From: Desulfamplus sp.
Lineage (GTDB): Bacteria > Desulfobacterota > Desulfobacteria > Desulfobacterales > Desulfobacteraceae
Direction of reading: 5' to 3'
NCBI GenBank assembly: GCA_015232455.1
Contig: JADFZQ010000002.1
Span: 306,256 to 370,255, forward strand
DNA length: 64,000 nt
A model generated the notes under the pieces. That model saw only the letters and a program-made list of their open reading frames with translations. It was not told where the DNA came from and searched no databases. A program made the position numbers and the translations under genes. Shown one piece after another: positions 59,401 to 63,833 of the stretch. Position 1 is the stretch's first letter; each line of letters opens with the position of its first letter.

Positions 59401-60738
59401 ATGTTGCAAAAATATAGTAGTAGTGATGGATTACAACATATTAAATCAGAAGGTGTTGCTATCCTTTCGTCAATGCAAGGTGTATCTCAAGTCAATTTTA
59501 ACTCTGACATCTGCCTTTCAAATAGCCTATCTCAAGATTGTTCTTCGCCTAATAATCTTAAAAAAAATAGCTCGTTTACAAAATATGAAAAACCCGGATA
59601 TTTTATCTCCCATTTTGTAGAGAGGTTTATAGATACAGAAGTTGGTCAAATTCCTGTAGTTAGCAGCAAATTAACTTTTAAAGATAGATTACAAACTTTA
59701 GGGGCAAGGTCTGGAATTACACGAAATAACTATAAAGTTGTTCCCGGACTCTATGCTATTGGAATGCCTGATGAAAACTCAGAAGTTCTTGTTACCTCAA
59801 ACTTTAAATTGACATTTGATATTTTAAGAACGGCTCTTCAGAGCGATTTAAAAGCTGATTTAATAGTAAATAGTAGTATTAAATCAAGTGATTCTAATAA
59901 GAACTCCAATAAATTTGAGAAGATAAATGCTTGGATTCTTGTTCTTGATACCTTAGGTGTCAATGTCTGGTGTGCTGCTGGGAAGGGGACTTTTTCAACA
60001 AAAGAGCTTGTAAATAGAGTTAAATTATGTTGTTTAGAAAAAGTTGTAAAACATCGAAGGCTTATATTACCTCAGCTTAGTGCAACTGGTATTAGGGCAA
60101 AAGATGTAAAAAAAGAGTGTGGATTCTCCGTTATTTATGGACCTATTAGAGCTTTGGATATTCCTTCATTTATCGTAAATGGAAGAAAAATTGTTGACCC
60201 AGATATGAGGCAAATTACATTTAACTTTAGAGAAAGATTAATATTAACACCTATTGAATTAACTGTTGGGTTCAAGGCATTTGTATTTACAGCGGCAGCT
60301 CTTATGTTTATATCTTTAATAAACTCTGGACTATTTTCATTACAAAATGGAATTAAAGCTGAATTAATAAATACTTTAGATCGTGGATTTATCTCCATTC
60401 TTTTTCTCTTAGTTGGCTCTTTATCAGGTGCTGTTATAACGCCCGCTCTTCTTCCATTTCTTCCGTTTAAAGAGTTTGCGGCAAAAGGTATTATTGTAGG
60501 GGCAATTTTTTCATTTTTAGCCTTATTTATATCACCTGCTTCATCTCTAAGCATATCAGCAATGTTAGCATTATCTCTTTTTGGAACTGCGGTAAGCTCA
60601 TGGTTTGCAATGAATTTTACAGGTGCAACTCCTTTCACATCGCCATCAGGTGTTGAAAAAGAGATGAGACGTTTTATCCCGATTCAGGCAGGAGCAGCAT
60701 TTTTATCGCTTGTTTTATGGATTTATTCTGCATTTTGA
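59401..60738 (+). CDS. hgcA: mercury methyltransferase corrinoid protein HgcA
   Basis: 445 residues. The HgcA signature VLDTLGVNVWCAAGKGTF is present, with the cap-helix Cys (residue 191) that is expected to coordinate the corrinoid cobalt. After it come STKELVNRVKLCCLEKVVKH, RRLILPQLSATGI and FSVIYGPIRALDIP, as in known HgcA. From about residue 290 there are five hydrophobic helices (FKAFVFTAAALMFISLINSG; ILFLLVGSLSGAVITPALLP), the membrane domain. The N-terminal conserved part begins at PGYFISHFVERFIDTEVGQI; the first 60 residues and an insert (SSIKSSDSNKNSNKFEK) are additions. HgcA donates a methyl group to Hg(II), forming methylmercury. It is followed by hgcB. Ribosome site AGGA. Confidence 0.95.
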   Translation: MLQKYSSSDGLQHIKSEGVAILSSMQGVSQVNFNSDICLSNSLSQDCSSPNNLKKNSSFTKYEKPGYFISHFVERFIDTEVGQIPVVSSKLTFKDRLQTLGARSGITRNNYKVVPGLYAIGMPDENSEVLVTSNFKLTFDILRTALQSDLKADLIVNSSIKSSDSNKNSNKFEKINAWILVLDTLGVNVWCAAGKGTFSTKELVNRVKLCCLEKVVKHRRLILPQLSATGIRAKDVKKECGFSVIYGPIRALDIPSFIVNGRKIVDPDMRQITFNFRERLILTPIELTVGFKAFVFTAAALMFISLINSGLFSLQNGIKAELINTLDRGFISILFLLVGSLSGAVITPALLPFLPFKEFAAKGIIVGAIFSFLALFISPASSLSISAMLALSLFGTAVSSWFAMNFTGATPFTSPSGVEKEMRRFIPIQAGAAFLSLVLWIYSAF

Positions 60739-60822
60739 AATTATCTATTCATTAAAAAATATTATACTAAAAAAATAAAATTTCTTTAAATAAATGACTA
60801 ATACTTGTAATGGAATAATATA

Positions 60823-61116
60823 ATGAGAAATATGAGATATTTGGAGCATGTCGCAACTTTAATTCTTGATAAGGAGGCATGTATTGGTTGCAGCTTATGC
60901 ACTGTAGTATGTCCTCACCAAGTTTTTCAAATAAGAGACGGCAAGGCAGTAATTGTTGACCTTGACAGTTGCATGGAGTGTGGAGCATGTGTGAATAACT
61001 GCCCTGTTTATGCTCTTAAAGTAACCCCGGGTGTTGGGTGAGCGGCATACATTATCCAAGTTTGGATAAAAGGCAAAGAGAAAGCATCATGCGGTGGCGT
61101 TGGTGGCTGCTGCTGA
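60823..61116 (+). CDS. hgcB: HgcB ferredoxin, candidate selenoprotein (UGA = Sec73)
   Basis: Read through one TGA, the frame is 97 residues. It begins MRNMRYLEHVATLILDKEAC and holds two [4Fe-4S] motifs, CIGCSLCTVVCP (C-x2-C-x2-C-x3-C) and CMECGACVNNCP. After ALKVTPGVG comes TGA (61039-61041), then AAYIIQVWIKGKEKASCGG and VGGCC, then TGA stop at 61114. HgcB proteins have a single conserved Cys at this point and a terminal Cys-Cys pair; by memory it is Cys73 in D. desulfuricans ND132, and here codon 73 is TGA. HgcB reduces HgcA and is thought to handle Hg(II). It lies 84 bp after hgcA. Without readthrough the protein ends at residue 72, lacking the whole tail. Confidence 0.9.
61052..61069 (+). 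promoter_or_regulatory. candidate SECIS hairpin of hgcB
   Basis: TTATCC (61052-61057) pairs perfectly with GGATAA (61064-61069), loop AAGTTT, extendable by A-T pairs to leave a loop AGTT with G near its start. The loop is 17-22 bases after the TGA, within the range for bacterial SECIS elements. The stem codes for conserved-looking residues (IIQVWIK), so it is coding and structural at once. Confidence 0.65.
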
Positions 61117-61240
61117 CATTTTGCAAATCTGGAGTATATATTTAAAACGAAAGCAAATCTAACTGTTATATATTTAAAACTCAACTTATGACCGAGAGCG
61201 ATTAAACTAAAATAAACAAAAATTAATTTAGGAGAAATTT

Positions 61241-61420
61241 ATGGCAAAACCAGAAGAGATGTATCAATGTCAAACTGTAAACTGCGGGTATATCTATAAT
61301 CCTGATAAAGGAGATAAAAAGGGCAAAATTCCTAAAGATACACAGTTCAATGATCTGCCAGACGACTGGAAATGCCCGATTTGCGGAGCGAGCAAAAAAG
61401 CATTTAAAGCACTTGGGTAG
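61241..61420 (+). CDS. rubredoxin, C-x4-C variant
   Basis: 59 residues: [20 protein letters not shown], then [20 protein letters not shown], then [19 protein letters not shown]. The second iron-binding motif is the standard C-P-I-C-G, but the first has four residues between the cysteines (C-QTVN-C-G-Y) instead of two; such C-x4-C rubredoxins are known in Desulfovibrio. It is a small electron carrier of the cytoplasm. GGAG lies ahead of the ATG. It is 125 bp after hgcB on the same strand, so it may share its transcript, though no link to mercury methylation is established. Confidence 0.9.
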
Positions 61421-62187: not shown

Positions 62188-63791
62188 TGTTAATGGACAA
62201 CAAAATTGATCCACTTTTCTACACTTTTTTTAAAAAATTAATCTGAGAGAGTTCCTTAAATTACAATTCAGGAGCGGATATGAAAGGTTAGATTATGATA
62301 CATAAAGTGAAGGCTTTATACGATAATGGCAATGGTTTAAGTGTTCGGAAGATAGCCCAAAAGTTGCAAATATCTCGGAACACTGTGAGTAAATATATAA
62401 ACATGGAAGAGTCAGAGATAGAGAGGAGGCAGTCAAAAAGAGAAAGAGATAAGAAATTAGATGAATATCCCAGTTATATTATCCATATTTTACAAAGTTA
62501 CCCTGATTTATCAGCAGTGAAAATATTGAGAAAACTAAAGGCAAAGGTAGAATTATTAGATATATCAGACCGTTCGGTGAGGCGTTATATAGAATCATTG
62601 AAAGTAGAAATCAGCGTAAAGCAGGGAAGATATTACGAACCAGTAATTGACATGGTTGCGGGAGTGCAATGTCAGGTAGATGGTGGAGAGATGCGTGGAG
62701 TAATGGTTGGAGGCAAAGAGACAACCGTATATTTCACAGTATTTGTATTGTCATATTCAAGGCTGATGTATGTATCGTTATCATCAAAGCCAATAGATAC
62801 GCAGACGTTGATTTACCAACATGATGCAGCGTTTAGATATTTTGGAGGCTTGCCTCAGGAGTGCGTGTATGACCAGAGTAAACTTGTTGTTATAAGCGAG
62901 ACGTTTAGAGAACTTGAGTTAAATGAGCGTTTTCACCAATATGCAACAACAGCAGGGTTCAATATTAGAGCGTGTGAAGGATATGACCCAGAGAGTAAGG
63001 GAAAGGTAGAGTCAGGAGTAAAATATGTCCAACAAAACGGTCTGTATGGAGAAGAATTTAAGGATTGGCAAGGGCTTGAGAGTTATATAGTTGAGTGGCT
63101 TGACACTGTTGCGAATCAACGGCTGCATGGAACAACAGGCAAACAACCAAGTGTTCATTATGAGCTTGAAGAGCAAGCCAAGATGCTGCCCTATTTTACG
63201 CCGTCTATGGTTTCCATTATTGATGAGCATCAAACAAGACAGGTGGACAAAACAGGTCTTATCTCATGGGAATCAAATAAATACTCTGTTCCTATGGCGT
63301 ATCAATGCTCAAAGGTAGGAGTATCGACTAATGAGGGGTATCTTTATATCCACGATATTGGAAAAGGAGATAAGATTGCAGAGCATCTTATCAGTTTGGA
63401 AAAAGGTCAAATTATAAAAAACCGACACCATTACCGTGATGTAAATCAACGCATAGAGGAGCTTGAAAAGCAGCTTCAAGAGCTATTGGGTGATAACGAA
63501 GGTGTAAGTTTATGTAATTTGTTAAAGCAAAACTCCCCTAAAATCTACAAAGACCAGTTGGCAGCAGCCAACAAGATAATTGAATCTCATATCAAGCAAT
63601 ATGGCAGTATAAACAGTGAGTTACTGGAACATATCTTATCAATATCCTCTTTGACAGCAACCAAATTACGAGATTGGCTAAATACAAGTCAATCACACCG
63701 TAAACACACTGTTGAGAACAAAGAGCATGGCAGAGAACCTTCTTTAGAGATATTGGCAAATTATGCCAACCTCAATGTTCGCTCAAACATA
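62188..63791 (+). mobile_element. IS21-family element, left part
   Basis: Begins with TGTTAATGGACAAC and ttgatccactttt, the terminal repeat style of IS21-type elements, inserted into the IS982 transposase remnant. It holds istA and is broken at its right by an IS1-like element at 63792; istB is not in the window. Confidence 0.72.
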
Positions 63792-63833
63792 GGTGATTGC
63801 CATGTTATCAATTGGGTAGTGCTTAACATGTAG
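62295..63833 (+). CDS. istA: IS21-family transposase IstA, 3' end replaced
   Basis: 512 codons as read. The N-terminal HTH is GLSVRKIAQKLQISRNTVSK. The DDE-type integrase core has the Asp in VQCQVDGGEMRGVMV, the Asp in GLPQECVYDQSKLVV, and the Glu in YDPESKGKVESGVKYVQQNG. The C-terminal region includes LISWESNKYSVPMAYQ. The final dozen codons (after NVRSNI) come from the inverted repeat of an IS1-like element, so the native C-terminus is lost or truncated by about ten residues and the AAA+ helper gene istB is separated. Transposition activity is doubtful. Confidence 0.85.
   Translation: MIHKVKALYDNGNGLSVRKIAQKLQISRNTVSKYINMEESEIERRQSKRERDKKLDEYPSYIIHILQSYPDLSAVKILRKLKAKVELLDISDRSVRRYIESLKVEISVKQGRYYEPVIDMVAGVQCQVDGGEMRGVMVGGKETTVYFTVFVLSYSRLMYVSLSSKPIDTQTLIYQHDAAFRYFGGLPQECVYDQSKLVVISETFRELELNERFHQYATTAGFNIRACEGYDPESKGKVESGVKYVQQNGLYGEEFKDWQGLESYIVEWLDTVANQRLHGTTGKQPSVHYELEEQAKMLPYFTPSMVSIIDEHQTRQVDKTGLISWESNKYSVPMAYQCSKVGVSTNEGYLYIHDIGKGDKIAEHLISLEKGQIIKNRHHYRDVNQRIEELEKQLQELLGDNEGVSLCNLLKQNSPKIYKDQLAAANKIIESHIKQYGSINSELLEHILSISSLTATKLRDWLNTSQSHRKHTVENKEHGREPSLEILANYANLNVRSNIGDCHVINWVVLNM

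What the first reader, a model, noticed from the sequence alone, without database searches (positions are those of the whole stretch)
60823..61116. HgcB appears to be a selenoprotein: UGA replaces the conserved cysteine at residue 73
Seen: hgcB sits 84 bp after a full hgcA; its frame hits TGA after codon 72, yet the same frame goes on for 24 codons that look like the rest of HgcB (AAYIIQVWIKGKEKASCGG, then a final Cys-Cys) before the next TGA. A perfect 6-8 bp hairpin lies 10-28 bases after the TGA. Known: HgcB carries two [4Fe-4S] motifs, one strictly conserved Cys near residue 73 and a terminal Cys pair important for mercury methylation (from memory). Inferred: Sec sits at that conserved Cys. 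Since selenols bind Hg(II) far more strongly than thiols, a Sec here could change Hg delivery, redox potential or product release. I know of no description of Sec-containing HgcB.
Basis: partly seen in the sequence, partly recalled or inferred. Interest (0 to 1): 0.97.

Follow-up and report, generated by a model that had tools for sequence, protein, structure and literature searches.

The report
Selenocysteine form of mercury-methylation protein HgcB
In this bacterial genome the hgcB gene, one of the pair needed to make methylmercury, has a UGA codon where its relatives carry a key cysteine, followed by a conserved hairpin, so it most likely inserts selenocysteine there; selenium forms of HgcB were already reported in 2023.

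Summary
TGA at 61039-61041 is residue 73 of HgcB, a cysteine in other HgcB genes, and the frame runs on 24 codons to a final Cys-Cys. Of 80 related loci, 54 have TGA there and 26 a Cys codon. Codons after the TGA are under stronger purifying selection than those before it (pN/pS 0.081 against 0.226). The 7-bp hairpin behind the TGA is complete in 59 of 59 TGA genes and 2 of 41 Cys genes; its usual loop, AGGUCU, also follows the Sec codon of E. coli fdhF. The genome has tRNA-Sec, SelA, SelB and SelD, and no other hgcB over the family cut-off. The reading is supported but not new: Sec-HgcB (motif GVGU) is listed in a 2026 review citing Haft & Gwadz 2023, a paper I could not read. What I did not see in print is the extent: in a sample of the order, 48 of 48 genomes of the window's family with a match carry an in-frame TGA (codon itself read in 29). 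That Sec is inserted, and what it does, is untested.

The parts
59401..60738 (+). hgcA, corrinoid protein with Cys in the NVWCAAGKG motif; start codon uncertain (long N-terminal stretch before the family domain)
   Evidence: NF040863, 392 bits, cut-off 275; only hgcA over the cut-off in the genome
60823..61116 (+). hgcB read through the internal TGA, 97 residues plus stop; two CxxCxxCxxxCP motifs and a C-terminal Cys-Cys
   Evidence: NF040864, 119.9 bits, cut-off 99; only hgcB over the cut-off in the genome
61039..61041 (+). TGA, predicted selenocysteine codon 73
   Evidence: 54 of 80 related loci have TGA and 26 a Cys codon at this place
61052..61069 (+). predicted bacterial SECIS hairpin: 7-bp stem, loop AGUU at 61059-61062
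   Evidence: Fold; stem complete in 59 of 59 TGA and 2 of 41 Cys genes; silent sites frozen

Best explanation
This hgcB is most likely a selenoprotein gene: its in-frame UGA lies at the codon where relatives have a conserved cysteine (residue 73), and the conserved 7-bp hairpin just behind it is predicted to act as the SECIS that lets SelB insert selenocysteine. Shown: place of the UGA, conserved tail, hairpin specific to UGA genes, complete set of Sec genes, no second hgcB over the cut-off. Inferred: that Sec is inserted and full-length HgcB is made. Inferred and weaker: Sec73 would take the part that Cys73 has in other HgcB proteins, probably on the path of Hg(II) or electrons to the corrinoid of HgcA next to the C-terminal Cys pair, as a stronger Hg(II) ligand.
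For: TGA or Cys codon, no other, at residue 73 in 80 of 80 loci; pN/pS 0.081 behind the TGA against 0.226 before it in 58 TGA genes; 7-bp stem in 59 of 59 TGA against 2 of 41 Cys genes; loop AGGUCU shared with E. coli fdhF; tRNA-Sec with anticodon TCA, SelA, SelB, SelD; SelD and formate dehydrogenase genes of the same genome with in-frame TGA; same motif GVGU listed for HgcB in a review.
Against: No protein-level evidence. The window's own loop is AAGUUU, unlike the commonest AGGUCU, and its hairpin alone is not significant. No Rfam match. SelA is as common in genomes whose hgcB showed no TGA (39 of 39) as in TGA genomes (40 of 41; G355 lacks a match), so it does not discriminate. Nothing here tests the role of Sec73; published proposals put Hg transfer on the C-terminal pair.
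Confidence: 0.95

Rival explanations
1. The UGA is a true stop: HgcB ends at residue 72, as a short functional form or a decaying gene.
For: Gene callers end it there (P0002 and P0078, 72 residues).
Against: The tail is under strong purifying selection, keeps Cys-Cys in most loci, and TGA but no TAA or TAG occurs at the place in 80 loci.
Confidence: 0.03
2. Sequencing or assembly error in place of TGC or TGT.
For: None found for this locus. One database protein has Leu at the place (P0054), so odd codons do occur.
Against: The same TGA with the same hairpin in 54 of 80 separate records and in the other same-genus genomes with a match.
Confidence: 0.005
3. UGA is read as another amino acid by a changed genetic code.
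For: None found.
Against: hgcA and hgcB themselves end at TGA; the UGA stands where relatives have Cys; tRNA-Sec with anticodon TCA is present.
Confidence: 0.002

Closest known systems
Selenoprotein form of HgcB (NF040864, motif GVGU, WP_250697400.1; Haft & Gwadz 2023, doi 10.1128/jb.00259-22; known to me here only through PMC13188914 and PMC11588087, passages)
   Same: HgcB with Sec right after GVG
   Different: Another organism. Whether the 2023 paper covers this genus, the hairpin or the family-wide occurrence I could not see (not held).
Cysteine-type HgcB, e.g. that of Pseudodesulfovibrio mercurii ND132
   Same: Two 4Fe-4S motifs, GVG motif, C-terminal Cys-Cys; Cys73, Cys94 and Cys95 called crucial there (PMC11588087, passages)
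   Different: UGA in place of the Cys codon and a hairpin behind it. I did not align the ND132 protein itself.
SECIS of E. coli fdhF
   Same: Loop hexamer AGGUCU in a hairpin close behind the UGA, in 48 of 59 TGA-type hgcB genes
   Different: Hexamer 17 nt after the UGA, against 16 nt in hgcB; other stem; the window itself has AAGUUU

Membership tests
HgcB (NF040864) | Full-length match over the curated cut-off | tested here: met
   119.9 bits, cut-off 99, model 1-93 of 93, with Cys for the UGA; 116.2 bits in the genome search
HgcB (NF040864) | Neighbour of hgcA | tested here: met
   hgcA ends 84 bp before
HgcB (NF040864) | Takes part in mercury methylation | not testable with these tools
   No assay
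Bacterial selenoprotein | UGA in the column of a conserved Cys | tested here: met
   54 TGA and 26 Cys codons in 80 loci
Bacterial selenoprotein | Conserved hairpin right behind the UGA | tested here: met
   59 of 59 TGA genes, 2 of 41 Cys genes
Bacterial selenoprotein | selA, selB, selC and selD in the genome | tested here: met
Bacterial selenoprotein | Sec found in the protein | not testable with these tools
   Needs mass spectrometry or 75Se labelling

The most novel reading that the evidence does not exclude
In the family of Desulfamplus HgcB has become an obligate selenoprotein, so that in these bacteria methylmercury formation depends on selenium supply; and the Sec codon with its hairpin travels as one 3' module, which in one lineage (L145) was grafted onto a Cys-type HgcB by recombination.
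Probability: 0.3. Interest if true: 0.75.

Novelty: new member of a known kind. Interest (0 to 1): 0.42.

Why it matters
HgcB is needed to make methylmercury. A selenium form that is the rule in a whole family would tie mercury and selenium cycling together in these organisms. It also means that gene callers cut such HgcB proteins at residue 72 and lose the C-terminal Cys pair, so that surveys based on full-length HgcB may miss or misjudge them.

Tried and rejected
Rejected: true stop, sequencing error, changed genetic code (see rivals). Looked for and not found: an Rfam match over 60700-61300; a Sec codon at the NVWC cysteine of HgcA in the loci where my pattern found that motif (in-frame TGAs further upstream in some loci were not followed, so a Sec-HgcA elsewhere in the protein is not excluded); a rubredoxin behind hgcB in relatives (0 of 77 with enough flank, by pattern only); a solved structure named HgcA or HgcB (60 of 139 matched sequences shown; 4 of 4). 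In the phylum sample, of 116 matching genomes among 395, only the window's own had TGA at residue 73; the TGAs reported for G655, G644 and G731 lie elsewhere, as do those of G203 and G180 in the order sample. SelA presence does not separate TGA from other genomes. Papers: no hit for Desulfamplus with hgcA; one paper for Desulfospira joergensenii with mercury methylation, seen in the listing only.

Limits of the counts: the 80 loci are the best of 154 relatives of a Sec-type query, so 54 to 26 is not a natural frequency. rest on 111 rows (window, L021-L100, L106, L132-L160), of which 3 did not parse (L137, L147, L148, all with Cys) and 8 duplicates were dropped, leaving 59 TGA and 41 Cys. L101-L105 and L107-L130 were left out as likely repeats of earlier loci, not checked one by one; 30 of 30 of L101-L130 show TGA. 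One search used 58 of the 59 TGA rows (without L145). In one search the comparison with L145 used 58 TGA and 39 of 41 Cys rows. The match list is cut off, so the count outside the window's family is a lower bound.

Full report
Observation. hgcA (59401-60738; NF040863, 392 bits, cut-off 275) is followed after 84 bp by a frame that reads as HgcB up to a TGA at codon 73 and goes on for 24 codons to Cys-Cys-TGA. Read with the TGA as a residue, the protein covers the whole NF040864 model at 119.9 bits, cut-off 99. The assembly (98.47% complete) has no other hgcA and no other hgcB over the cut-offs. The genome is a Desulfamplus by inference: the HgcB of the same-genus genome G035 (L104) reads like that of D. 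magnetovallimortis (L025).

The TGA is in the cysteine column. A scan of one genome per species gave 154 relatives; the best 80 were kept. At the residue after GVG, 54 of 80 have TGA and 26 of 80 TGC or TGT; none has TAA or TAG (L085 read by eye). The papers held call Cys73, Cys94 and Cys95 of HgcB crucial for methylation (PMC11588087, passages). That this Cys73 is the same place as residue 73 here rests on the number, the family model and the motif GVGU in the review; I did not align the ND132 protein itself.

The part behind the TGA is translated, to judge by selection. Among 58 TGA genes pN/pS is 0.226 for codons 1-72 and 0.081 for codons 74-91. Within the tail, pS is 0.094 in codons 77-82 and 0.680 in codons 74-76 with 83-91: the protein is kept throughout, the silent sites only in the hairpin. 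The pairs are not independent, so I give no P value.

The hairpin. In the window a 7-bp stem (61052-61058 with 61063-61069) starts 11 nt after the TGA. On its own its energy is ordinary (z -1.24). Across relatives nt +10 to +17 and +22 to +29 are identical in 59 of 59 TGA genes. Silent third positions in the hairpin, +12, +15, +18 and +27, hold the commonest base in 59, 59, 58 and 59 of 59, against 28, 20, 28 and 21 of 41 in Cys genes; outside it, at +3, +30 and +33, the figures for TGA genes are 40, 37 and 32 of 59. The 7-bp stem is complete, G-U allowed, in 59 of 59 TGA and 2 of 41 Cys genes. The energy of the 22-nt stretch is -6.3 kcal/mol or lower in every TGA gene and no lower than -5.2 in the Cys genes. 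By my count from the listings the loop hexamer is AGGUCU in 48 of 59. E. coli fdhF, fetched as a yardstick, has the same AGGUCU 17 nt after its UGA; in hgcB it lies 16 nt after. The window has AAGUUU: G at +18 and C at +21 became A and U, a change on both sides of a possible pair within the loop, while G at +19 and U at +20 stay. L142 has AGGGCU. Whether these loops work as well is unknown. Nucleotide +19 to +21 is also the Val codon of IIQVW; Cys-type proteins have Thr there about as often as Val (47 and 51 of 121 proteins, the read-through query among the latter), so a coding price of the hairpin is only a hint.

Machinery. tRNA-Sec with anticodon TCA, SelB, SelA and SelD are present over the family cut-offs. 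SelD and three formate dehydrogenase-like genes of the genome have an in-frame TGA with a hairpin predicted behind it; one of the three (contig C9) stays under the family cut-off and matches in pieces. SelA occurs in 40 of 41 TGA-type genomes tested and in 39 of 39 genomes whose hgcB showed no TGA: Sec decoding is common in these genomes and does not by itself explain which ones use Sec here.

Distribution. In the order sample (389 genomes, 169 with a match) 48 genomes of the window's family have a match and 48 of 48 show an in-frame TGA in it. I read the codon itself in 29 of these 48 (L101-L105, L107-L109, L111, L113-L130, L150, L151). At least 20 further genomes of the family had no match, two of them of the same genus. 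Outside the family TGA at residue 73 was read in seven genomes, G016, G202, G251 (two copies), G145, G087, G051 and G154; an eighth, G100, agrees in place with L054. In the phylum sample (395 genomes, 116 with a match, some perhaps other ferredoxins) only the window's genome had it.

History. A tree of 100 HgcB proteins with residue 73 masked needs two changes between Sec and Cys: 58 Sec rows fall together and L145 lies apart. It has few columns, 53 of 96 inner branches are weak, and the starred branches force only one change. L145 looks like a mosaic: its first 66 residues are nearest to Cys-type rows (best 74%; best Sec-type 64%), its next 21 are Sec-type (up to 100%; best Cys-type 86%), with nucleotide identity up to 90% against 75%. 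Transfer of the 3' end and an independent gain are both possible.

What is known. PMC13188914 (2026 review; passages) lists HgcB, NF040864, motif GVGU, one Sec, WP_250697400.1, from Haft & Gwadz 2023, and also a Sec form of HgcA. PMC11588087 (2024; [quoted passage not shown] That paper is not held; I know its title from a reference list. Searches for hgcB with selenocysteine, hgcB with selenoprotein, methylmercury with selenoprotein families and ABC transporter, mercury methylation with selenocysteine and HgcA, and Desulfamplus with hgcA listed no other paper that I recognised as an account of Sec-HgcB. So the kind is known and this is a new member. The family-wide occurrence, the fdhF-like loop and the mosaic gene I did not see in print, but I could not read the key paper.

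Mechanism. Most likely UGA 73 is decoded by SelB and Sec-tRNA at the hairpin, giving a 97-residue ferredoxin with Sec at a place that is essential in Cys relatives. That Sec73 lies on the Hg(II) or electron path to the corrinoid of HgcA is inference from the work on Cys proteins; published proposals put Hg transfer on the C-terminal pair (PMC10896945 and PMC11588087, passages). As no Cys copy was found in the genome, full-length HgcB would need selenium.

Noticed in passing
L145 (G154:C6:1600-2300): Mosaic hgcB: Cys-type first 66 codons, Sec-type 3' end with TGA and hairpin.
   Followed up: partly
L142 (G251:C426:3500-4300): A second TGA-type hgcB in one genome, with loop AGGGCU and Gly in place of Val at residue 80.
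   Followed up: no
61241-61420: Rubredoxin gene (PF00301, 72.5 bits) behind hgcB; not found behind hgcB in 77 relatives by pattern.
   Followed up: partly
62295-63833: Transposase-like gene with rve and Mu-type C-terminal domains, about 1.2 kb behind hgcB.
   Followed up: no
L066 / L150: A second in-frame TGA near the C-terminus of this HgcB (ASC-TGA-DSGCC); error, stop or another Sec not decided.
   Followed up: no
protein P0054: HgcB with Leu at residue 73 and an otherwise Sec-type tail.
   Followed up: no
L018, L166, L167, L170: Other in-frame TGA genes of the same genome: SelD and three formate dehydrogenase-like genes.
   Followed up: partly
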